A stretch of 52,231 nucleotides of DNA, taken from contig NZ_GL883086.1 of assembly GCF_000204035.1 (NCBI RefSeq), positions 324,803-377,033 of the forward strand, read 5' to 3'. The notes beneath the pieces are model-generated. The model saw only the letters and a list, made by a program, of their open reading frames with translations. It searched no databases and was not told where the DNA came from. The stretch is from Brevundimonas diminuta ATCC 11568 (GTDB lineage: Bacteria > Pseudomonadota > Alphaproteobacteria > Caulobacterales > Caulobacteraceae). Shown here piece after piece: positions 1 to 9,226 of this stretch (positions are counted from its first letter, which is position 1; each line of letters opens with the position of its first letter). The position numbers were made by a program, and so were the translations under genes.

Positions 1-111
1 GCTGAGGCTGCGCGGGCCCAGACGGCGGCCGTCGCCGCCCGCGTTCCGCCGCGCTTGCGCCGCTGGCTAGGGAAGTCCCTAGCTGGGGAACGGCCTGACT
101 ACCGAGGATAG
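1..111 (+). CDS. C-terminal end of an unidentified protein (5' truncated)
   Basis: Frame 1 is open from the window edge to TAG at 109-111 and gives 36 residues rich in Ala and Arg, ending in a basic stretch. Third codon positions are mostly G or C, as in genuine genes of this genome, and the other two forward frames stop earlier. No domain can be recognised from so short a tail. A near-perfect inverted repeat (66-83) lies inside it, so this end could also be non-coding leader for the next gene. Confidence 0.35.
   Translation, partial: AEAARAQTAAVAARVPPRLRRWLGKSLAGERPDYRG
66..83. promoter_or_regulatory. 18-bp inverted repeat, possible operator or hairpin
   Basis: GCTAGGGA at 66-73 is mirrored by TCCCTAGC at 76-83 with only two bases between them. 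It lies about 120 nt upstream of the hypothetical gene at 200. It could be a dimeric regulator site or the base of a small hairpin. No known regulator was matched. Confidence 0.25.
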
Positions 112-199
112 GGGACGAGTGGTTTCGTGAGGTCGTCGGGTTTCCGGGCGAGGCGCCTGGCCGGCGAACCGGAAACGCACACTTATTCGGAGAAAGATC

Positions 200-871
200 A
201 TGTTCGGCATCGGCGGCGGCGGCTTCAACATCGGCAGCCTGGTCAGCACGGCGGCCTTGGCGGTCGCCACGGGCGGCACTTCTGTCGCGCTTCAGGCGGC
301 TCTTTCGACTGTTATGCAAACGGTGGGCAGCCAGATCCTGCAGCAGGTCGGCCAGCAACTGGGGTTGCCGCAGTCGGTTATTGATCTTGCTCAGGCTGCT
401 TTCGCGGGCGCTACGGGTAATCCAGCTGGCGTTGCTTCAAATCTTCAGGAAGCGACTCAGGGCGTATCTGATCTGTTTGGCGCCACACCGTATCAGGCTG
501 GCGAATTCCATCGTGCGAGCGAAGACTTCGTCCAGAAGATGTCGAACATGATCATCGACGGCATGAAGAATGAGAATGAAAAGGCGGCTTCGGCAGGCGG
601 TGTAGGCAACGCCAACGGCCAGTCATTCCTGGTCCGCCTCGGCATCGCTCTAGGTTCGGTGCTTGATCAGAAGATGGATCGGATGATGGCGATCTCGCGC
701 GAAATCGCCGGGCTCGGTAAGATTGATCAGAACAATCAATCCAAGCTGGCTGGGTTGACGGGTGAAATGCAAGGTATTGGTCAAGAGTATGGCTTGGTTT
801 CCAACGCCCTGAACAATACGCAGAAGGCGATTGGTGAAGGAAATAAAACCCTGGCTAGCAAGAACGGTTAA
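200..871 (+). CDS. Glycine-rich hypothetical protein
   Basis: The 223-residue protein is not recognised. It starts at ATG 200 behind a good ribosome site (GGAGAAAG). The N-terminus is Gly-rich (MFGIGGGGFNIG), followed by a small-residue hydrophobic stretch at about residues 15-50 and a Gln-rich segment. The C-terminal half (about 95-223) is polar with Asn, Gln, Lys and Glu and may be helical. No cleavable signal peptide is obvious. Codon use is less GC-biased than in the housekeeping genes downstream. It precedes the three DUF6683-type genes, separated from them by a strong hairpin. Secretion-system substrates can have this composition, but nothing specific supports that here. Confidence 0.75.
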   Translation: MFGIGGGGFNIGSLVSTAALAVATGGTSVALQAALSTVMQTVGSQILQQVGQQLGLPQSVIDLAQAAFAGATGNPAGVASNLQEATQGVSDLFGATPYQAGEFHRASEDFVQKMSNMIIDGMKNENEKAASAGGVGNANGQSFLVRLGIALGSVLDQKMDRMMAISREIAGLGKIDQNNQSKLAGLTGEMQGIGQEYGLVSNALNNTQKAIGEGNKTLASKNG

Positions 872-910
872 GACCGATCGCGCTGATTGGGACAGATTGT
901 CGGCTAAATT

Positions 911-936
911 CGCAGCCACTCTCAGGAGTGGCTGCG
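911..936 (+). terminator. Hairpin terminator after the hypothetical gene
   Basis: An 11-bp perfect stem (911-921 with 926-936) closes a TCAG loop, 40 nt after the stop at 871. Only a weak T-rich stretch follows. It separates the first gene from the DUF6683 genes. Confidence 0.55.
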
Positions 937-965
937 TTGGCGATTTAGAGCAGAGGCTGTGTAGG

Positions 966-1700
966 ATGAATTTTGAACGTTTCTGTAAGTCATTGATTCC
1001 GATGATCGGTGTCATGAGTTTGGGGCTGACTTATCCTGTGATCGCTCAATCCTATATGCCGATGGGCAGCTTTGAAGCGGTCGCCTATCCGGTCGCTATA
1101 ACGCCTCTTCCGCTGAACACCTCCGGGGCTCGTTCGGGCGCAACTGGCGCTGCTGCCGCGCCGCGCCGCGCTGAGCCTGTCGTGCAGACGACGTATCGTG
1201 CTCAGTCCGCAGTTACTCAGCGAGTGAAACGCCAGTTTACTGAATTCGTTGGACGCAATGGCGGGGACGCGGCCGGACTGGCGGTGGCCATGGAGCGTGA
1301 GGACTTTTTTGCACGTTGGGGGCGTCACGTATCGTCATATGGCTTACGTCGCGGGGATGCCGCCGACGCCATGACCGCTTACTGGATGATCAACTGGCAG
1401 ATAGCCAATGATGTGACCGATGTGAGCCGCAGTCAGGTGCTGGCGGTCAAGCGTCAGGTTCTTGCAGGCATGGGGGCGGACGCTGGATTCAGCCGTTTGA
1501 ACGATGCTGAAAAGCAGGAAATGGCAGAGGCTCTGATCCTCAATTTCATCATTCAGAGCGTTGCCTATGAAGACGCTATGAAGGCGAATGACGCGGCGAT
1601 AAAGGGTCGACTTCAAAGCGCTGCCGTCGCGCGATTCAGAAATGAGACGGGGGTCGATTTGCGACGTATCCGACTGACCGAGACGGGCTTTTCCTCTTGA
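966..1700 (+). CDS. Secreted DUF6683-type protein, copy 1, ending at a suspected readthrough UGA
   Basis: The 244-residue protein has an N-terminal signal peptide (basic MNFERFCK, then a hydrophobic core to about residue 28, mature start near QSYMP). A Pro/Ala linker follows, then a domain of about 170 residues. That domain carries VKRQF.EFV, YGLRRGDAADAM.AYW, EKQEMAEALILNF and the closing block DLRRI.LTETGF. The order fits the family I know as DUF6683; its function is unknown. ATG 966 is chosen because an upstream in-frame TTG at 831 would overlap the previous gene and bury the signal peptide. The domain is complete at the UGA (1698-1700), but the frame stays open to TAG 1857-1859. It is first of three tandem paralogues. 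Confidence 0.8.
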   Translation: MNFERFCKSLIPMIGVMSLGLTYPVIAQSYMPMGSFEAVAYPVAITPLPLNTSGARSGATGAAAAPRRAEPVVQTTYRAQSAVTQRVKRQFTEFVGRNGGDAAGLAVAMEREDFFARWGRHVSSYGLRRGDAADAMTAYWMINWQIANDVTDVSRSQVLAVKRQVLAGMGADAGFSRLNDAEKQEMAEALILNFIIQSVAYEDAMKANDAAIKGRLQSAAVARFRNETGVDLRRIRLTETGFSS

Positions 1701-1720
1701 AAGGGGCAGGGCGACAGCCC
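1693..1720 (+). promoter_or_regulatory. Putative UGA recoding element, copy 1
   Basis: Two small hairpins sit head to tail. CCTC (1693-1696) can pair with GGGG (1703-1706), placing the UGA in the loop UUGAAA. GGGC (1709-1712) pairs with GCCC (1717-1720) around GACA. The stretch 1693-1729 is the same, apart from one base, in all three paralogues, although the coding sequence just upstream has diverged. The recoding role is inferred. Confidence 0.45.
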
Positions 1721-1859
1721 GAAGGCCAATCCCGCGTCTGAAGTTTCGCATTATCCGTCGTCTTTGGGCCTTCTTGCCTATGGGGCCGCTGGATTGGCGA
1801 CAGGAGCTTTCTTCGTGGCGGCGGTCTGGGCGCTGATGCATCGGCGGCGCCGAAGTTAG
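1701..1859 (+). other. In-frame C-terminal extension after UGA, copy 1 (linker, TM helix, Arg tail)
   Basis: Reading on in frame gives 52 residues: a linker starting KGQGDSPKANP, a Gly/Ala-rich hydrophobic helix (about extension residues 22-46), then HRRRRS and TAG. This is the plan of C-terminal sorting or membrane-anchor tails. ATG of the next gene lies only 10 nt beyond this TAG, and its ribosome site (AGGAGA) follows directly. That is normal operon spacing if the extension is translated. If UGA were the only stop, the gap would be 169 nt. Confidence 0.6.
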
Positions 1860-1869
1860 GAGAAGCGCG

Positions 1870-2628
1870 ATGAAGCAGATGTGGAGAGCTGCAGTCGTAG
1901 CCTGTGTGTTGGCGGGTGCGTCGATGGCGCAAGCGCAGGACTATATGCCGTCTTTCAGCAGCGGTAATCTGTCGGCCGATATCGCCAACACCATCCTGAA
2001 TAATACTCTGATGGAAGCGCAGATGGGCATCAACCGGGAGCGCGGCGAAAGGGCTGCGCCGAGTGATCCCGCTATGCGCGCCCGCGCGTCTCGGGCGGGC
2101 GCCTATGCAACCACCTATCAGGCTTCGGCTGCCGTTACGGAGCGCGTCAAACGCCAGTTCGCGGATTTCGTGCGTTCGACGGGCGGGGACGGGGCCGGGA
2201 TCGCTGCTGCGATGAACGATCAGGACTTCTTCGCTCGCTGGGGCGGGCACGTGTCCCAGTATGGTCTGCGCCGGGGCGATGTGGCGGACGCCATGACGGC
2301 CTATTGGGTGTTGAACTGGCAGATCGCCAACGACGTTCGTTCGGTGGATCGCTCGCAGGTTCAAGCCGTAAAGGCGCAGGTGCGGCAGAACATGACGAGT
2401 AACGCTCAGTTTGGCGCTCTGAACAATGCGCAAAAGCAAGAGATGGCCGAGGCGTTGATCCTGAATTTCATCGCCCAGAGCGTCGCCTATGAAGACGCCA
2501 TGCGGGCCAATGACGCGACGATGCAGCGTCGTTTGCAGAATGCGGCGAGGACGCGGTTCCGTAATGAGATGAACGTGGATCTTCGCCAATTGCGTTTGGG
2601 CGGGAGCGGGTTCACGGCCGCCTCTTGA
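1870..2628 (+). CDS. Secreted DUF6683-type protein, copy 2, ending at a suspected readthrough UGA
   Basis: The 252-residue protein has a clear signal peptide (MKQMWRAAVVACVLAGASMAQA, mature start QDYMPSF). A variable spacer follows, then the same domain as copy 1 with VKRQFADFV, FFARWGGHVSQYGLRRGDVADAM, YW.LNWQIANDV and KQEMAEALILNFIAQSVAYEDAM. Start ATG 1870 has AGGAGA 6-11 nt upstream. Copies 1 and 2 are close in protein sequence but differ at many silent sites, so the duplication is not recent. The UGA at 2626-2628 is again followed by an open frame to TAG 2785-2787. The mature protein should be periplasmic or extracellular; its role is unknown. Confidence 0.85.
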   Translation: MKQMWRAAVVACVLAGASMAQAQDYMPSFSSGNLSADIANTILNNTLMEAQMGINRERGERAAPSDPAMRARASRAGAYATTYQASAAVTERVKRQFADFVRSTGGDGAGIAAAMNDQDFFARWGGHVSQYGLRRGDVADAMTAYWVLNWQIANDVRSVDRSQVQAVKAQVRQNMTSNAQFGALNNAQKQEMAEALILNFIAQSVAYEDAMRANDATMQRRLQNAARTRFRNEMNVDLRQLRLGGSGFTAAS

Positions 2629-2648
2629 AAGGGGCAGGGCGACAGCCC
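2620..2648 (+). promoter_or_regulatory. Putative UGA recoding element, copy 2
   Basis: GCCTC (2620-2624) can pair with GGGGC (2631-2635), one pair being U-G, and this puts UGA in the loop UUGAAA. A second stem, GGGC/GCCC (2637-2640 with 2645-2648), closes GACA. Copy 2 is identical to copy 1 for about 68 nt from the CCTC through the first 20 codons after UGA. The recoding role is inferred. Confidence 0.45.
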
Positions 2649-2787
2649 GAAGGCCAATCCCGCGTCTGAAGTTTCGCATTATCCGTCGTTTTCGGGCCTT
2701 CTTGCCTATGGGGCGGCCGGATTGGCGACCGGAGCCTTGTTGGTTGCGGCGGTCTGGGCCGTAATGCGTCGGCGACGCCAGAGTTAG
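2629..2787 (+). other. In-frame C-terminal extension after UGA, copy 2
   Basis: It encodes 52 residues with the same plan as copy 1: the KGQGDSPKANP linker, a Gly/Ala-rich helix and RRRRQS. Against copy 1, 14 of 52 codons differ, 7 silently and 7 mostly conservatively (F/L, L/V, H/R, R/Q), with no indel and no stop. TAG (2785-2787) is followed by the start of copy 3 at 2798, again a 10-nt gap. Confidence 0.6.
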
Positions 2788-2797
2788 GATGCTTGCT

Positions 2798-3514
2798 ATG
2801 AAGTATTTGGCGGTCATGGCGGTCATGGCTTGCGCGGTGGCAAGCGCGCCGATGGCTCGCGCCCAGGACTACGCCTTTCAGGGCTTTGCGACCGCGGACG
2901 CAATGAACCAGATGCACGCCGCCATGCGTGACAATATGACGGAGCCGCCTTCTGAGCCGCGACCGCCTGAGCGCAGCCGTGTCGCAGCGGCTACGACCTA
3001 TCGCTCGACGCCGGCTGTATCGACGCGCGTTCAGTCTCAGTTTGCTGACTTCATCGAGCGCACGGCAGGGCGCGAAGCCGCTGAGCGGACGCGTTCAGCT
3101 TTTCAGAGCGGCGACCCGATCGCCAGTTGGGCGGGCATCGTGCGTGAGGATGGCCTGCGTACTGGTGATCTGGCCGACGCCATGGCGACCTATTGGATTC
3201 TCAATTGGATCATGGCCAATCAGGGCTACAACAACCGGACCCAGGCGCTGGCCGTTCGCGATCAGGTGCGCGGGGTTATCGGCGGGTCGCCCGCCGTGGC
3301 GCGACTGGGCGATGCGGGGCGTCAGGAGATGGCCGAGGTGCTGATGCTGAACTTCCTGGTGCAGCAAGCGACTTATGTGGATGCGATGCAGCGGGGCGAT
3401 CAGGCGATGATGCGGCGTCTGGGCGATGCGGCTGTTGCGCGGTTCCGTAACGAGATGGGTGTTGATCTGCGTCGATTGCAGTTGACCGACGCGGGCCTGG
3501 TGTCTGCCTCTTGA
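2798..3514 (+). CDS. Secreted DUF6683-type protein, copy 3, ending at a suspected readthrough UGA
   Basis: The 238-residue protein starts MKYLAVMAVMACAVASA with a signal peptide cut near ARA/QDYAF. The domain is the most diverged of the three but keeps V..QFADFI, DGLRTGDLADAMATYW, RQEMAEVLMLNFLVQ and DLRRLQLTDAGL. ATG 2798 is preferred over the in-frame ATG 2789 because TTAGGA then sits about 9 nt upstream, matching the layout before copy 2. The UGA (3512-3514) has the same context as the other copies, and the frame continues to TAA 3668-3670. Confidence 0.82.
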   Translation: MKYLAVMAVMACAVASAPMARAQDYAFQGFATADAMNQMHAAMRDNMTEPPSEPRPPERSRVAAATTYRSTPAVSTRVQSQFADFIERTAGREAAERTRSAFQSGDPIASWAGIVREDGLRTGDLADAMATYWILNWIMANQGYNNRTQALAVRDQVRGVIGGSPAVARLGDAGRQEMAEVLMLNFLVQQATYVDAMQRGDQAMMRRLGDAAVARFRNEMGVDLRRLQLTDAGLVSAS

Positions 3515-3534
3515 AAGGGGCAGGGCGAGAGCCC
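3506..3534 (+). promoter_or_regulatory. Putative UGA recoding element, copy 3
   Basis: GCCTC (3506-3510) can pair with GGGGC (3517-3521) around UUGAAA. GGGC (3523-3526) pairs with GCCC (3531-3534) around GAGA, a GNRA tetraloop. The single difference from the other copies falls in this loop and leaves the stem intact. Similarity to the other copies is lost about 10 nt further on. Confidence 0.45.
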
Positions 3535-3670
3535 GAAGGCCAAACCTTCAACTGAACCGCCAGCGACGCCTGTGCCGGGCGTACTGTTTTTTGGCGTGGC
3601 GGGTCTGGCGGGGGCAGGCCTGAGCGCCTTGGCGCTTTGGGTCATGGGGCGGCGGCGCGGCCGAAAATAA
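3515..3670 (+). other. In-frame C-terminal extension after UGA, copy 3
   Basis: It encodes 51 residues. The first ten, KGQGESPKAK, match the other copies. The rest has diverged in sequence but keeps a Pro-rich linker, a hydrophobic Gly/Ala/Leu helix and a GRRRGRK tail. Conservation of the plan despite sequence divergence points to selection on the translated product. Confidence 0.6.
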
Positions 3671-3779
3671 AGCGAGCTCTTGTGGGACGTTGGCGGACGA
3701 CGGTTGTCGCCGCCATGCCGTTTTGCGGGTGCGCGAACAGCGCCGAAGAGGCGGGCGTCAGGCGCGCTAGACAACATCA

Positions 3780-3792
3780 GTATATCGTATAC
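3780..3792. promoter_or_regulatory. Palindromic operator before the TonB receptor (GTATA-N3-TATAC)
   Basis: The perfect inverted repeat GTATATCGTATAC lies 42 nt before the receptor start. Related sites occur at 9249, 9351, 11933 and 15651. The core resembles the T-N-GT-N-AC-N-A pattern bound by GntR regulators of the FadR/FCD group, and one such gene lies at 13987. Confidence 0.6.
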
Positions 3793-3833
3793 CTTATTCG
3801 CTCTCTTAAGAAGCTCTCAGGGGAGGGACAATT

Positions 3834-6755
3834 ATGAATGCGAGTAAGACGCCATGCGCCATCACGGGGCGCTGGAGGAGACGAGTTTTAGCGGCGGGCG
3901 TGAGCCTGGGCGCCATCGGCGCGCCGATGGCCGCCTTGGCGCAGAGCGCCGCGCCTGTCGGCGATGAGCCGGCGCAGGTCGATGAGATCGTGGTCACGGG
4001 GTCGCGCCTGCAACGCAGCGGGCTGGACGCGCCGACGCCTACCATGGCCATGACGGCCGAGACGATTGAGGCGAAGGGCATCACCAACATCGCCGAGATT
4101 CTGAACGAGATGCCTCAGGTGGCGACGGGCCTATCGAACGCCAACACCAGCTACAGCTTCGGCAACATCGGTCTGAACCAGGTTAATCTGCGCAACCTGG
4201 GCGTCCGCCGCACCCTGACGATGGTGGACGGCCGCCGCAGGGCCGGCACGCCGGACGACTCCAACTTCCTGGCCTTTGACCTGGGCAATATTCCCGCCGC
4301 CTTGGTGAAGCGGGTCGAGGTTCAGACGGGCGGCACCTCGGCCGTTTACGGCGCAGACGCCGTGGCGGGCGTGGTCAACCTGATCCTCAAGGATGATTTC
4401 GACGGCTTCGAAGCCAACGTTCAGTACGGTTCGGACGAGGGCGGCGACTACGACACCCTGACCTATGGCCTGACAGCCGGAGTCAACTATGAGCGTGGCA
4501 ACGCCGTTCTGCACGTCAGCCGCACCGAGAGCGGGGGACTGACGCGCGGCGACCGGGGTTTGGGTACAGCCTATCGCTTCGTGTCGAACCCCGCCAATAC
4601 GGGGCCTGCCGACGGCATCCCTGCGCGGATTCCCATGCGCGACCTGCGTTACGCCTATTTCGCGCTGGGCACGCCGACGAGCTATCTGCCGTTCGGTGAG
4701 AACGGCGCCTGGACGGATGTCATCTTTGATTCCGCCACCCAGACCTTCCGTCCGCTGAAGGCCGGTGAGCGGGGGGTGATCGACGGCTCCTATTCCACGG
4801 AAGAGGGCGGAAACCAGAACGCCGACACCCTGGTCGCGCCGCTGGAGCGGACGAATGTCTACGCCAAGGCCGACTATCGTCTGACGGACAAGCTGAAGGT
4901 CTTCACCGAAGCGGTCTTCTCCGACATCACCGCCCGCGACCGCATCAGCGCGGTGTTCGATTCTTGGAGCGGGGCGGTTTCCATCGACAACCCCTTCATG
5001 CCTACGGCGGTGCGGAACGGCTTGGTCGCTGCGGGCGAGGATTCTATGCAGTACGCCCGATCGCACGACGAGTTCGGCATGCGCGGCACCGACATGAACC
5101 GCAAATATTACAGCATCGCCGCCGGGCTGGAAGGTGAGTTCGGCGAGACCTGGAAATGGTCTACGGTCTTCGAATACGGCAAGTCGCAGACGACCAATCG
5201 CAATCTGAACGACCGTATCGACGGGCGCTGGTTTGAAGCCTTGGACGCCATTCGCGACCCATCCAGCGGCGACATCGTCTGTCGTAGCGTCGAGGCGCGG
5301 GCGCGGGGCTGCGTCCCTGTGAACATCTTCGGCCAAGACACGATTTCTGCTGAAGCCATCGATTACATCCGCGCCGATCACACCTCGACCACGGACACCA
5401 GCCAGACCCTGATCCAGGGGCTGATCGCGGGCGATCTGTTCCAACTGCCCGCCGGGGCGGTGAAGGTGTCGGCGGGCGCTGAATACCGCAAGGACGAGAT
5501 CGATTTCCGTCCGTCCTACGTCTGGGAGAATGCGCTCGGCTTTTTCGCCAGCCAGTTTTCGCCGATTCAGAAAAGCAACGACGTCCGTGAGGCCTTTGCC
5601 GAGGTTCTGGTCCCCCTGGTGCGCGACAAGCCCTTCGTCCACTCGCTGGAGATCGAAGGGGCCTATCGTCTGTCGGACTATGAGCGTGCGGGCAGCGTCG
5701 ATTCCTGGAAGCTGGCCGGCTCTTGGGCGCCGATTCCGGATATCCGTTTCCGCCTGACCAAGGCGACCGCCGTGCGCGCGCCCTCGCTGGGCGAGATGTT
5801 CAATCCGGGCAGCCGTGGCGCCGCGGGGCTGAGCGACCCCTGCGACCCCAATCTGCTGGACAGCGGTACGGAAAACCGGCGCAAGAACTGTCTGGCCCTG
5901 GGCTTCGATCCCGTCACCTGGGATCCGAACACGCGTCGCATGACCACCTTGGTGTTCAGCACCGGCAATCCTGATCTGGATGTCGAGGAAGCCGACACCA
6001 TGACGGTTGGAGCGGTGGTGCGTCCGCGCTTCTTGCCGGGATTCGCCTTCTCGACCGATTACTACAAGATCAAGCTGGACGGCGGCATCTCCCGCATCGG
6101 CGCCCAGCAGACGGTCGACAACTGCGTCGACCTGCCGTCGCTGGATAACCAGTTCTGCGGCATGCTGACCCGCAGGCCGGACGGCAATCTGTATGAGGTG
6201 CTCGACAGCTATATCAACGTCGCCTCGTTCGAGGTGGAGGGCGTCGATTTCGAGGCCACCTATCACGCTGAGCTGGCCGATCTTCTGCGGCGCGACGGCG
6301 ACCTGGGGCGCATCAGCCTGCAGGGCGTCGCCTCTTACCTGAAGCACAACATCTTCATTGATCGGGATGTGGCTACGGGCGAGGAGACCGCCTTCGACTA
6401 TGCCGGCGAGGCGGCTAATCCTAAGTGGCGCGGCATGTTGAACGCCACCTATTATCGCGGACCGATCCAGGTGAACTGGTCCAGCCGTTTCGTTGATGAG
6501 ACGGTGACGAACAACCGGCTGCCGAACCCGGCCGAAGACATCGGCGGCTACTACAACATTCCATCGGTCTGGTATCACGACCTGTCGGTCGCGGTGGACA
6601 CGCCGATGGACGTCCGGTTCACGGCCGGCATCCGCAATCTGTTCAACGAAGGGCCGCGTGATCACCCCTCGACTGCGCGCGGCAACCTGGGGATGGACGA
6701 CCTGATCGGTCGCTTCTTCTTCCTGGGCGCCAAGTGGCGCTTCGGCGGACAGTAG
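3834..6755 (+). CDS. TonB-dependent outer-membrane receptor
   Basis: The 973-residue protein has a signal peptide (basic start, hydrophobic core, cleavage near ALAQ at about residue 37) and a TonB-box-like DEIVVTGSR at about residues 50-58. A plug domain follows, with LRNLGVRRTL.MVDGRR and VEVQTGGTSAVYGADAVAGVVNLILK. The long 22-strand-type barrel ends in WRFGGQ. It should import a ligand across the outer membrane using TonB energy. Start ATG 3834 has GGGAGGG 8-14 nt upstream. The shared operator at 3780 suggests induction with the 4-hydroxyproline genes, so the ligand may be hydroxyproline-containing peptides. That substrate is inferred from context only. Confidence 0.92.
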   Translation: MNASKTPCAITGRWRRRVLAAGVSLGAIGAPMAALAQSAAPVGDEPAQVDEIVVTGSRLQRSGLDAPTPTMAMTAETIEAKGITNIAEILNEMPQVATGLSNANTSYSFGNIGLNQVNLRNLGVRRTLTMVDGRRRAGTPDDSNFLAFDLGNIPAALVKRVEVQTGGTSAVYGADAVAGVVNLILKDDFDGFEANVQYGSDEGGDYDTLTYGLTAGVNYERGNAVLHVSRTESGGLTRGDRGLGTAYRFVSNPANTGPADGIPARIPMRDLRYAYFALGTPTSYLPFGENGAWTDVIFDSATQTFRPLKAGERGVIDGSYSTEEGGNQNADTLVAPLERTNVYAKADYRLTDKLKVFTEAVFSDITARDRISAVFDSWSGAVSIDNPFMPTAVRNGLVAAGEDSMQYARSHDEFGMRGTDMNRKYYSIAAGLEGEFGETWKWSTVFEYGKSQTTNRNLNDRIDGRWFEALDAIRDPSSGDIVCRSVEARARGCVPVNIFGQDTISAEAIDYIRADHTSTTDTSQTLIQGLIAGDLFQLPAGAVKVSAGAEYRKDEIDFRPSYVWENALGFFASQFSPIQKSNDVREAFAEVLVPLVRDKPFVHSLEIEGAYRLSDYERAGSVDSWKLAGSWAPIPDIRFRLTKATAVRAPSLGEMFNPGSRGAAGLSDPCDPNLLDSGTENRRKNCLALGFDPVTWDPNTRRMTTLVFSTGNPDLDVEEADTMTVGAVVRPRFLPGFAFSTDYYKIKLDGGISRIGAQQTVDNCVDLPSLDNQFCGMLTRRPDGNLYEVLDSYINVASFEVEGVDFEATYHAELADLLRRDGDLGRISLQGVASYLKHNIFIDRDVATGEETAFDYAGEAANPKWRGMLNATYYRGPIQVNWSSRFVDETVTNNRLPNPAEDIGGYYNIPSVWYHDLSVAVDTPMDVRFTAGIRNLFNEGPRDHPSTARGNLGMDDLIGRFFFLGAKWRFGGQ

Positions 6756-6783
6756 GCGCAAGTTCCCCAGTCTTGACGCCGGG

Positions 6784-6810
6784 AAAGGGGCGGGCGCCGA
6801 CCGCCCCTTT
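6784..6810 (+). terminator. Rho-independent terminator of the TonB receptor gene
   Basis: A ten-pair stem (6784-6793 with 6801-6810) closes a 7-nt loop and is followed by TTCTGTTTTT. It sits 29 nt after the receptor stop. Confidence 0.8.
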
Positions 6811-6838
6811 TTCTGTTTTTCGATGCATCCAGACATGA

Positions 6839-6866
6839 AAAAGGCGGGTTGATGGACCCGCCTTTT
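6839..6866 (-). terminator. Terminator of the convergent S9 peptidase gene
   Basis: AAAAGGCGGGT (6839-6849) pairs with ACCCGCCTTTT (6856-6866). Read on the minus strand it lies 20 nt after the peptidase stop and ends in a T-run. It can also work on the plus strand. Confidence 0.75.
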
Positions 6867-6886
6867 CTATTCGGTTGTGTGCCTCC

Positions 6887-9226
6887 TCAGTCGAAGGCGC
6901 GCATCTTGTAGGCCGGGGGAGGGGTCTGGTGCAGCAGCTCCTGCACGAAGAAGTCCCAGCGTCGGCGCTGGTAGTAGGGCACGGCGTCCAGATAGTGGTC
7001 TGCGTTTGGCACCATCAGGAAATCGAAGTCCTTGTTCGCCTTGATGAGGGCGTCGACCAGCCGCAGCGAAGCCAAGGGCGGCACGTTCTCGTCCAGTTCG
7101 CCGTGGGCGATCAGCAACTGACCTTCCAACCTGGGCGCCCAGGTGATGTTGGAGTTCTGATCGTACAGGGAGCCAAGCTCCGTCCCCATCCACTGTTCGT
7201 TCCAAACCGCCTTGTCCAGGCGATTGTCGTGGTTGCCAGAGGCGGTGACGCCGACCTTGTAGAACTCGGGATGACGGGTCATGGCGCGCACCACGTCATA
7301 GCCCCCGGCCGAAAAGCCGTAGATGCCGACGCGCTCGACGTCCATCCAGGGGTTGCGGGAGGCGATATCGCGGATTCCGGCGATGTGGTCCTCCAGCCCA
7401 ACGCCATGCAGATTTTTGTAGGCGACCTGCTGGAAAGCGCGCGAACGGCCCCAGGTGCCGCGGCCGTCGATGGTCACGGAGATGACGCCCAACTGGGCGA
7501 TGGAGTTGGCGTTGCGCGAGGTCATTGCGGCCTCGAAGGACTTGGGCGTCATCACATGGTGGGGCCCGGTGTAGATGTCCTCGATGACCGGATAGCGTTT
7601 GGTCGGGTCGAAGTCTGCGGGTTTGAACAGGGCGCCGTAGATCGGCGTCACGCCGTCGGCCGCCAATGTCTGGAACGGTTCGGGCAGCCGATAGCCGGCG
7701 GCCACATAGGCGCTGATGTCGGCGCGACCCAACTCCATGACTATGCGCCCGTCGCTGGATCGGCGCAGCACCGAAAGGGTCGGCTGGTCGATCGTCGACA
7801 TGTTGTCCACGAAGAAGCGGCCATCAGGCGAGACCGAGACATCGTGGTCCATCGCCTCGGGCGTCAGCAGACGCGGCTGTCCGCCCGTCGTGGGAACGGA
7901 ATAGAGATGTCGCAGATAGGGATCGCGCCCGGTCTCGCGGCCCGAGCCGATGATCAACAGGCGTTTGGCCTTATGATCGGCGCCCGCCACGGATCGGGCG
8001 CGCCAGTCGCCGGACGTGATCTGTCGCCGTTCGCCCGTCCTAGCATCGACGGCGTAGATATGGGCGAAGCCGTCTGGATCCGCCGTCCAATAGTGGGTGT
8101 CCGACTTGTCATCATAGGACCAGTGGTGGCCGTAGAAGTCGACATAGGTGTCAGAACGATCCTCAGTCAGCAGACGCGTCTCGCCGGTCTCGGCTTCGAT
8201 GCGATGAAGTTGCAGAGCTCCGTAGCCCCGCACGGCGAAGCGCTCGAAGACAGCGCGGCTGTCGGCGCTCCATTCATAATAGGGGCCGCCATAGTATAGG
8301 ATAGGCCGGGCCGGGGTCTGCATGGGAATGCTGCGGCCGGTGGCGACTTCGAAGATGAAGCCCTGCGCCGACGCCGTCTCAGTGTCGCCGGTCAAGGGGT
8401 AGAGGTAGTCCAGAACGCGCGGCGGTCCGCCGTCCTTGGGCGTGGACTGCACCAACGACAGACGTCGCGCTTCTTCGCGGTTGATGCGGTAGGTGGCGAG
8501 ATAGCGTGAGTCGGGCGACCATCGGATCGCTGGGCGCACCACGGGGGCTGACGTGCCCTGGGCCACCATGTCGTTGAGGTTGATCAGCGGGGTGGCGTAG
8601 GGCGAGGCGGCGCCGTCCTGGGTCAGTCGTTGCTCGGCGTTGTCCGCTGTTGAAATCAGGATCAGATCGCCGCCGCGCACCACGGCGCGCCACCGGCCGT
8701 CGGGAGATTCGACGCCCTTGTCTTTGTCCAGCGCTTCGTCGATCGCCTCGACGACCCCGGTGGCGGGATCGAAGCGCCAGCTACGGCCGTCATGGGCGAA
8801 CTCCAGACGGCGGGTCTCAGTATCGACCTTGAGGCGTTTGAGCTCCAGGTTTTGACGCAACAACGGCTTGCCTGTGGCGGCCGCCAGTCGGGCAGTCAGA
8901 AAATCATGATCGAACAGGGGGCGGGTCTGACCCGAAAGAGGATCGACTTGCACATAGTCGCGTCCGCCGGGCGTTCGCCGCTCGAACCAGAACTCCGAGC
9001 CTTCGCCGATCCATTGCGGCCGGACGCTGAGCCCGAAGATGAGTTCATCGACATGCTGCGGCAGGACCGCCTCGGCTCTGCGGTAGACCTCGGCGGACAT
9101 GGCTGTCGCTGAAGTTCGGGCGGCAGCGGCAGGCCCCGCTGGTGCGGTTTCAGCGAAGGCGGGCGTCAGGGCCAGCGGCGCAGCGCTGGTCATCAGCAGC
9201 ACGGCCAGGGCGGATAGGCGCTTCAT
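6887..9226 (-). CDS. DPP-IV-like prolyl oligopeptidase family (S9) peptidase, exported
   Basis: The 779-residue protein starts MKRLSALAVLLMTSAAPLAL, a signal peptide cut near AFAE. ATG 9226 has GGGGAGAAA upstream; a longer in-frame start would precede the signal peptide. The first part (about 45-530) reads as a DPP-IV-type beta-propeller with WSPDSRY, YEWSADS and SVSPDGRFF blades. The catalytic domain has GFSAGG (Ser about 639), HGELDENVP (Asp about 712) and NADH (His about 744). S9 enzymes of this group cut short peptides, often after proline. The gene diverges from the catabolic genes, and the operator at 9249 lies just upstream. A role in releasing hydroxyproline or proline from imported peptides is therefore likely but unproven. 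Confidence 0.9.
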   Translation of the reverse strand: MKRLSALAVLLMTSAAPLALTPAFAETAPAGPAAAARTSATAMSAEVYRRAEAVLPQHVDELIFGLSVRPQWIGEGSEFWFERRTPGGRDYVQVDPLSGQTRPLFDHDFLTARLAAATGKPLLRQNLELKRLKVDTETRRLEFAHDGRSWRFDPATGVVEAIDEALDKDKGVESPDGRWRAVVRGGDLILISTADNAEQRLTQDGAASPYATPLINLNDMVAQGTSAPVVRPAIRWSPDSRYLATYRINREEARRLSLVQSTPKDGGPPRVLDYLYPLTGDTETASAQGFIFEVATGRSIPMQTPARPILYYGGPYYEWSADSRAVFERFAVRGYGALQLHRIEAETGETRLLTEDRSDTYVDFYGHHWSYDDKSDTHYWTADPDGFAHIYAVDARTGERRQITSGDWRARSVAGADHKAKRLLIIGSGRETGRDPYLRHLYSVPTTGGQPRLLTPEAMDHDVSVSPDGRFFVDNMSTIDQPTLSVLRRSSDGRIVMELGRADISAYVAAGYRLPEPFQTLAADGVTPIYGALFKPADFDPTKRYPVIEDIYTGPHHVMTPKSFEAAMTSRNANSIAQLGVISVTIDGRGTWGRSRAFQQVAYKNLHGVGLEDHIAGIRDIASRNPWMDVERVGIYGFSAGGYDVVRAMTRHPEFYKVGVTASGNHDNRLDKAVWNEQWMGTELGSLYDQNSNITWAPRLEGQLLIAHGELDENVPPLASLRLVDALIKANKDFDFLMVPNADHYLDAVPYYQRRRWDFFVQELLHQTPPPAYKMRAFD

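What the first reader, a model, noticed from the sequence alone, without database searches (positions are those of the whole stretch)
966..3670. Three tandem paralogues with a conserved in-frame UGA followed by a conserved membrane-anchor extension: likely programmed stop-codon readthrough
Seen directly: after UGA at 1698-1700, 2626-2628 and 3512-3514 the frame stays open for 52, 52 and 51 codons. All three extensions encode linker, one hydrophobic helix and an Arg cluster. Between copies 1 and 2 there are 14 codon differences, 7 silent and 7 mostly conservative, with no indel or stop. Copy 3 has diverged but keeps the same plan. A dead tail would not stay open and keep its plan in three copies. 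The upstream domain is complete at the UGA. I infer that some ribosomes read UGA as an amino acid and make a second, C-terminally anchored form. I know of no described system of this kind for this family.
Basis: partly seen in the sequence, partly recalled or inferred. Interest (0 to 1): 0.93.

Follow-up and report, generated by a model that had tools for sequence, protein, structure and literature searches.

The report
Stop-codon readthrough adds membrane anchor
In a small group of Brevundimonas bacteria, genes for one predicted secreted protein family carry a conserved UGA stop codon followed by a conserved stretch encoding a predicted membrane anchor, so a fraction of ribosomes likely reads through the stop and makes a second, membrane-tethered form; other members of the same family encode an anchor of the same plan at the same point with no stop in between.

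Summary
Among 131 genomes of the genus, three others carry the same UGA plus tail, one copy each (53, 50 and 49 codons), so all length changes keep frame. The tails show purifying selection (combined p about 0.002), and a simplified neutral-decay simulation keeps an open anchor plan in all six copies in at most 0.13% of runs. The ten codons after the UGA show no synonymous variation in six copies, against 149 of 208 informative domain columns; a hairpin is predicted 8 nt after the UGA. New here: another set of DUF6683 proteins carries linker, helix and basic end at the same junction with no stop, while Caulobacter-type genes have none, so an anchored form is an ordinary family layout. Selenocysteine and UGA reassignment are not supported. 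Likely mechanism: partial programmed UGA readthrough giving soluble and anchored isoforms. No expression data were available; readthrough itself is inferred. Rivals (relic tail, separate small membrane protein, recombination-conserved patch) are weaker but not excluded.

The parts
966..1697 (+). copy 1 (W1): DUF6683 gene up to the UGA, 244 codons, signal-peptide-like N-terminus
   Evidence: PF20388 E 3.6e-17; translation
1698..1700 (+). copy 1 in-frame UGA
1701..1856 (+). copy 1 tail, 52 codons: linker, hydrophobic helix, RRRR
1857..1859 (+). copy 1 tail stop UAG, inside the ribosome-site-like TAGGAG before copy 2
   Evidence: sequence
1870..2625 (+). copy 2 (W2): DUF6683 gene up to the UGA, 252 codons
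   Evidence: PF20388 E 2.5e-18
2626..2628 (+). copy 2 in-frame UGA
2629..2784 (+). copy 2 tail, 52 codons
2785..2787 (+). copy 2 tail stop UAG, inside TAGGATG before copy 3
   Evidence: sequence
2789..3511 (+). copy 3 (W3): DUF6683 gene up to the UGA (241 codons from 2789; start may be 2798)
   Evidence: PF20388 E 8.5e-18
3512..3514 (+). copy 3 in-frame UGA
3515..3667 (+). copy 3 tail, 51 codons, followed by UAA 3668-3670
1695..1729 (+). frozen patch around the UGA, copy 1 (TCT-TGA to GGCCAA)
   Evidence: 0 of 10 synonymously variable codons after the UGA in six copies; alignment A2; coordinates
2623..2657 (+). frozen patch, copy 2
3509..3543 (+). frozen patch, copy 3
1709..1720 (+). predicted hairpin GGGC-GACA-GCCC, 8 nt after the UGA (copy 1)
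   Evidence: stem invariant, loop varies between copies
2637..2648 (+). predicted hairpin, copy 2
3523..3534 (+). predicted hairpin GGGC-GAGA-GCCC, copy 3

Best explanation
The three tandem DUF6683 genes are likely dual-product genes in which most ribosomes would stop at the UGA and a minority would insert an amino acid (probably tryptophan) and continue into a conserved tail, giving a soluble and a C-terminally membrane-anchored form. Shown: the UGA, the in-frame tail with its hydrophobic stretch and basic end, their conservation in four genomes, selection on the tail, the synonymously frozen patch after the UGA, and a domain-plus-anchor layout without a stop in other family members. Inferred: that readthrough occurs, its rate, the inserted residue, the stimulatory role of the patch (predicted hairpin 8 nt after the UGA, and UGAA as the loop of a second predicted hairpin), and the topology (signal peptide exports the domain; the helix holds it in the inner membrane with the Arg cluster in the cytoplasm). 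Also inferred: since the tail's UAG lies inside the next copy's ribosome-site-like sequence, readthrough ribosomes could couple translation to the next copy.
For: UGA plus tail in 6 of 6 copies across the window genome and three other genomes; of 131 genus genomes searched, 5 have a DUF6683 match and 4 of those 5 carry UGA plus tail. Tail lengths 52, 52, 51, 53, 50, 49, all in frame. Fewer amino-acid changes than random placement of the same substitutions in three pairs taken as independent (p 0.026, 0.053, 0.018; combined 0.0016; 0.003 without codons 1-11) and milder hydropathy changes (0.019, 0.0047, 0.149; combined 0.001). Simulated neutral decay keeps open frame, helix and basic end in all six in 0.03-0.13% of runs. 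Patch: 0 of 10 codons synonymously variable versus 149 of 208 in the domain; none of 172 gap-free 10-codon domain windows has fewer than 3. In a search with P0082, 43 of 71 proteins pass a C-terminal helix criterion (two of them through the domain end only); in the 15 aligned, linker and helix follow the conserved ...GF.. domain end in frame. Tail stops of copies 1 and 2 abut the next gene's start. Published context: UGA is the leakiest stop in E. coli, most often read as Trp (5 of 10 cases), and its leak rises at low temperature and in poor nutrition (PMC11126739, passages).
Against: No protein or ribosome evidence. The clade is narrow (four genomes); a fifth genus genome with a 30% identical DUF6683 (G058) has no tail. 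The purifying signal is moderate: pair W1-L5 has dN about equal to dS (0.24, 0.23) and p 0.18, and without the first 11 codons four of nine pairs tested exceed 0.05. Copies recombine: tail and domain have different histories, so copies are not independent and part of the patch's identity could be gene conversion; in the three single-copy genomes alone the frozen patch is only p about 0.02, and 34 of 253 domain windows are equally frozen there. No covariation supports the hairpins; folding z-scores are only -0.1 to -2.1. In E. coli proteome data a G after the stop raised readthrough and a T lowered it (PMC11126739); here the next base is A, so the bare context is not specially leaky by that measure.
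Confidence: 0.7

Rival explanations
1. Relic tail: an ancestral anchored protein (as in other family members) was truncated by a sense-to-UGA mutation, and the tail is decaying or is kept similar only by recombination between copies.
For: Other family members have an anchor without a stop, so a truncation is easy to imagine; array recombination is evident; openness alone is not rare under neutrality (7.5-16% of simulations).
Against: Anchor plan kept in all six at 0.13% or less under simulated neutral decay; nonsynonymous changes depleted; UGA and the following ten codons are the most conserved part, the reverse of decay; three genomes gave one match each, so conversion between copies cannot act there now, unless copies are missing from those assemblies.
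Confidence: 0.12
2. The tail is a separate small membrane protein translated from an internal start, coupled to termination at the UGA.
For: AAAGGGG after the UGA resembles a ribosome-binding site; some tails have an in-frame ATG, GTG or TTG before or at the helix (L006, L007, copies 1 and 3).
Against: No ATG, GTG or TTG lies within 20 nt after AAAGGGG in any of the six copies; in-frame starts are not at a shared position, and copy 2 and L005 have none before the helix (sequences); the frame-conserved KGQG.SP.A.P part would be untranslated.
Confidence: 0.08
3. The frozen patch is a DNA recombination point at which tails are exchanged between copies, and its conservation says nothing about translation.
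For: Tails and domains are mosaic: L7 tail dS 0.33 to copy 3 but domain dS 1.33; L5-L7 domain dS 0.26 but tail dS 1.20; copy 1-copy 2 tail dS 0.25 but domain dS 1.95. The patch contains a short inverted repeat.
Against: The patch occurs nowhere else in the window genome at up to 3 mismatches, and its exact pattern was found in only three genome contigs, all of this clade; the exchange can be ordinary homologous recombination; it does not explain constraint on the tail.
Confidence: 0.07
4. UGA encodes selenocysteine with the hairpin as a SECIS element, or UGA is generally reassigned.
For: UGA followed by a predicted hairpin; an Rfam tRNA-Sec model matched just above its cut-off in 4 of 4 genomes.
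Against: That match is tRNA-Ser(TGA) by ARAGORN in all four. SelB is over its cut-off in 0 of 4 genomes; the two best sub-threshold matches are a contig-end piece of EF-Tu and IF-2. 223 of 345 sampled ORFs end in TGA and the L5 tail itself ends in TGA. The tRNA-Trp found at 1 of 13 places examined (of 36 pattern matches in G000) has anticodon CCA and an ordinary 5-bp anticodon stem. Caveat: the four genomes are 86-100% complete or so, and the SelB search listed no EF-Tu in G000, so absence is not proven.
Confidence: 0.01

Closest known systems
Leaky-UGA and stimulated readthrough genes (phage Q-beta A1 coat extension, recalled; gammaretroviral gag-pol readthrough with a 3' pseudoknot, passages of PMC5009743)
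   Same: in-frame stop followed by a conserved coding extension; possible RNA structure a few nucleotides 3' of the stop; presumed minority product
   Different: here a bacterial chromosomal gene family in tandem, the extension is a predicted membrane anchor, the structure is only predicted, no product seen
Eukaryotic functional readthrough giving dual localisation (fungal and animal peroxisomal isoforms, PMC4207609; MDH1, PMC5133446; both seen as search listings)
   Same: one gene, a leaky UGA, a short C-terminal localisation signal on a minority isoform
   Different: the signal is a predicted transmembrane anchor in a bacterium; UGA is followed by AAG, not by the CUA context of the eukaryotic cases (recalled)
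DUF6683 (PF20388) proteins with a fused C-terminal helix (P0082, P0112, P0131, P0136 and others)
   Same: same domain, same junction, linker plus one helix plus basic end
   Different: no stop codon: the anchored form would be the only full-length product; homology of the tails themselves was not tested
C-terminal anchor/sorting signals (PEP-CTERM, MYXO-CTERM, PVV-CTERM)
   Same: linker, helix, Arg cluster at the extreme C-terminus
   Different: all matches below the curated cut-offs

Membership tests
DUF6683 (PF20388) | match above the Pfam gathering score | tested here: met
   63.2, 67.0 and 65.3 bits against 23.6
Programmed stop-codon readthrough | in-frame stop with conserved open extension in related species | tested here: met
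   6 of 6 copies in 4 genomes
Programmed stop-codon readthrough | protein-level selection on the extension | tested here: met
   combined p 0.0016 (0.003 without the first 11 codons) and simulation
Programmed stop-codon readthrough | conserved stop codon identity and 3' context | tested here: met
   UGA within TCTTGAAAGGGGCAGGGCG invariant in six copies; 0 of 10 synonymously variable codons
Programmed stop-codon readthrough | stimulatory RNA structure | tested here: inconclusive
   hairpin predicted, stem invariant, no covariation, weak z-scores
Programmed stop-codon readthrough | extended product made in cells | not testable with these tools
   needs proteomics, profiling or a reporter
Selenoprotein | SelB and tRNA-Sec in the genome | tested here: not met
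   SelB over cut-off in 0 of 4 (best sub-threshold matches are EF-Tu and IF-2); tRNA-Sec match is tRNA-Ser
UGA reassignment (code 4-like) | UGA not used as stop; suppressor tRNA | tested here: not met
   223 of 345 sampled ORFs end in TGA; the one tRNA-Trp found is CCA with a 5-bp stem; a suppressor tRNA elsewhere in the genome was not excluded
CTERM sorting domains (NCBIfam) | match above curated cut-off | tested here: not met
   best PVV-CTERM 19.9 bits against 27, copy 2 tail alone

The most novel reading that the evidence does not exclude
A bacterial chromosomal gene family uses a UGA recoding element as a two-state localisation switch: termination status of the ribosome (release-factor activity, temperature, nutrition) sets the ratio of soluble to inner-membrane-anchored DUF6683 protein, and readthrough ribosomes, ending inside the next copy's ribosome-binding site, pass the signal down the tandem array.
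Probability: 0.3. Interest if true: 0.92.

Novelty: new variant of a known kind. Interest (0 to 1): 0.82.

Why it matters
Functional stop-codon readthrough is documented for viruses and eukaryotes. In nine searches of an open-licence library (listings, with passages of four papers) I saw no described bacterial chromosomal gene of this kind apart from selenocysteine and pyrrolysine recoding, although one review says in its abstract that recoding, readthrough included, is well known in bacteria (PMC8211752, passages). This locus supplies natural replicates (six copies, four genomes), a defined 30-nt candidate element, and two natural controls in the same protein family: members that lack the anchor and members that always have it. 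That makes programmed readthrough of a bacterial chromosomal gene directly testable with a simple reporter.

Tried and rejected
Selenocysteine (SelB, tRNA-Sec) and global UGA reassignment: tested, not supported. Rfam scan of window 1-8000: no match on the UGA patches. A known sorting signal on the tail: none above cut-off. Translation of the tails in the other two frames: every one of the six has at least one stop in +2 and five of six in +1. Phage, viral or plasmid origin: no match in phages or viral contigs; 7 plasmid records with domain matches under 60% identity, none counted as covering 80% of the query. Wider class sample: DUF6683 in 3 of 385 genomes, own included. Solved structures by sequence: best E 0.19. 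Structure model: domain mostly above pLDDT 90, linker below 50, tail helix about 60, so the anchor rests on sequence, not on the model. Caulobacteraceae (21 of 299 genomes with DUF6683): of the 30 loci returned, 4 are Brevundimonas ones, 7 were not matched by the script's motif, and 19 were read, holding 19 distinct genes; their best post-stop helix score is 1.24 against 1.69-2.25 in the six Brevundimonas tails. Fold comparison with solved structures could not be run. No phylogenetic tree was made: 'branch' and 'independent pairs' rest on pairwise similarity.
Full report
What is there. At 966-3670 lie three tandem genes of Pfam family DUF6683 (63-67 bits, cut-off 23.6), each with a signal-peptide-like start (by eye). 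Each ends in UGA, and the same frame runs on for 52, 52 and 51 codons: KGQG[DE]SPKA, a Pro/Ser/Ala linker, a hydrophobic stretch (max 19-residue hydropathy 1.83, 1.94, 2.08) and 4-5 basic residues in the last 12.

More than chance. In 20 stretches of 20 kb plus the window (452,231 bases, 345 heuristic ORF calls), 144 ORFs have an in-frame tail of 40 or more codons; 39 of these tails overlap other called ORFs by less than 20%. Of the 144, 14 have a helix score of at least 1.6 and 5 of those also have at least 3 R/K in the last ten. Three of the five lie 95% or more on another called ORF; the other two are copies 2 and 3. Copy 1 was not picked by that caller. One other tail with little overlap (L062, 52 codons, score 2.0) has only 1 R/K.

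Other genomes. A protein search of 131 genomes of the genus found DUF6683 in five, the window's included; in four of them every listed copy has exactly one stop inside the extended match, and it is TGA. The fifth, G058, has only a 30% identical domain and no tail. A scan of the genome-contig collection (11.3 million contigs) with TGAAAGGGGCAGGGCNNNAGCCCGNAGGC, exact, found only those three contigs; the window's own record may be left out of that scan. Within the window genome the pattern, at up to 3 mismatches, occurs only at the three copies.

Selection on the tail. Six tails of 52, 52, 51, 53, 50 and 49 codons all keep frame. Placing the observed substitutions at random gives more amino-acid change than seen in three pairs that I take as independent (W1-W2, W3-L7, L5-L6: p 0.026, 0.053, 0.018; combined 0.0016; 0.003 if codons 1-11 are left out) and larger hydropathy change (0.019, 0.0047, 0.149; combined 0.001). 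Six further, non-independent pairs: W1-L5 is not significant (0.18); the other five lie between below 0.001 and 0.047 for the whole tail; without codons 1-11 four of the six exceed 0.05. Neutral decay simulated on an approximate tree, for the part after codon 11, leaves all six open in 7.5-16% of runs, open with helix in 0.03-0.33%, and open with helix and basic end in 0.03-0.13%. The tree and substitution counts of that simulation are my approximations and it has no indels.

The patch after the UGA. From TCT-TGA to GGCCAA the six copies are nearly identical. Over the first ten codons after the UGA no codon varies synonymously (0 of 10), against 149 of 208 informative columns in the domain, and none of 172 gap-free ten-codon domain windows has fewer than three variable columns. 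This points to a nucleotide-level element. RNA folding puts a hairpin GGGC-GNNA-GCCC 8 nt after the UGA with invariant stem and varying loop, and a second hairpin with UGAA as its loop, whose outermost pair is missing in copy 1. Neither shows covariation, and z-scores run from -0.1 to -2.1, so the structure is a suggestion. Within the three single-copy genomes alone the freeze is weaker (0 of 9; about p 0.02; 34 of 253 windows equally frozen).

Recombination. Domain and tail have different histories: the L7 tail is close to that of copy 3 (80% identical) while its domain is closer to copy 2; the L5 tail is closest to copies 1 and 2. The array has probably expanded, contracted and converted. 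This is the main caution: copies are not independent, and some patch identity may come from exchange.

The family context. The first protein search returned 82 relatives (7,996 candidates scored); none of P0001-P0081 has a hydrophobic C-terminus, and they end near the UGA position, while P0082 runs on in frame through a linker and helix. Searching with P0082 gave 71 proteins, itself included (7,997 candidates scored); 43 pass a C-terminal helix criterion (P0138 and P0151 do so through the domain end, and P0134 just misses), with ends such as SPPYLLLAAAGGAGLGGVFLLGKMMGRRG. In the 15 that I aligned with the Brevundimonas proteins, linker and helix follow the same conserved ...GF.. end of the domain. 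Source names among them include Sphingomonas sp. DT-207, Parasphingorhabdus litoris and 'Pseudonocardia sp. TMWB2A'. The remaining members of that list have no tail, and the 19 Caulobacter-type genes read have none. So soluble and anchored DUF6683 proteins both exist as ordinary gene products elsewhere; the Brevundimonas genes put a UGA at the boundary between the two. Whether the tails themselves are homologous was not tested. Four members of the P0082 list, two with and two without anchor, show the same longest-contig length (16,819), which hints at arrays holding both kinds; I could not check it.

Mechanism. I conclude that partial UGA readthrough most likely makes a minority, inner-membrane-anchored isoform (confidence 0.7). 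UGA is the leakiest stop in E. coli, is most often misread as Trp, and its leak rises at low temperature and in poor nutrition (PMC11126739, passages), so the isoform ratio could respond to conditions. In the same paper a G after the stop raised readthrough and a T lowered it; here the next base is A, so any programming would have to come from the patch rather than from that one base. Tail stops of copies 1 and 2 are UAG codons inside the next copy's TAGGA ribosome-site-like sequence, so readthrough could couple translation along the array. These points are inference. Selenocysteine and code change are not supported, with the caveat that the genomes are not all complete and that the SelB search listed no EF-Tu in G000. 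No paper on DUF6683 was found, and none of eight further searches listed a bacterial chromosomal readthrough of this kind (listings only, with passages read in PMC5009743, PMC8211752, PMC11126739 and PMC13092985).

Noticed in passing
L052 (G000:C5:304803-324802), 1.9-17.1 kb, minus strand; 3.8-19 kb upstream of window 966: Type III secretion gene cluster: secretin, FHIPEP, EscN-like ATPase, FliN_C, FliP and Bac_export_1 proteins with a LuxR-type response regulator. Whether it is linked to the DUF6683 genes is unknown.
   Followed up: partly
window 200-871 (+): A 223-aa protein (FGIGGGGFNIGSL...) directly upstream is conserved at the same place in L005, L006 and L007 but has no family match over cut-off.
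   Followed up: partly
window 966-3670; L005, L006, L007: Domains and tails of the array are mosaic between copies and species, as expected from unequal exchange in a tandem array.
   Followed up: partly
G000:C5:691671-691756 and matches in three relatives: Rfam tRNA-Sec (RF01852) rings just above its gathering score (49.6 against 47) on tRNA-Ser(TGA) in four Brevundimonas genomes: a false positive to beware of.
   Followed up: yes
protein clusters P0082, P0084, P0100, P0106: Two anchored and two unanchored DUF6683 proteins show the same longest-contig length (16,819), suggesting arrays that hold both forms as separate genes.
   Followed up: no
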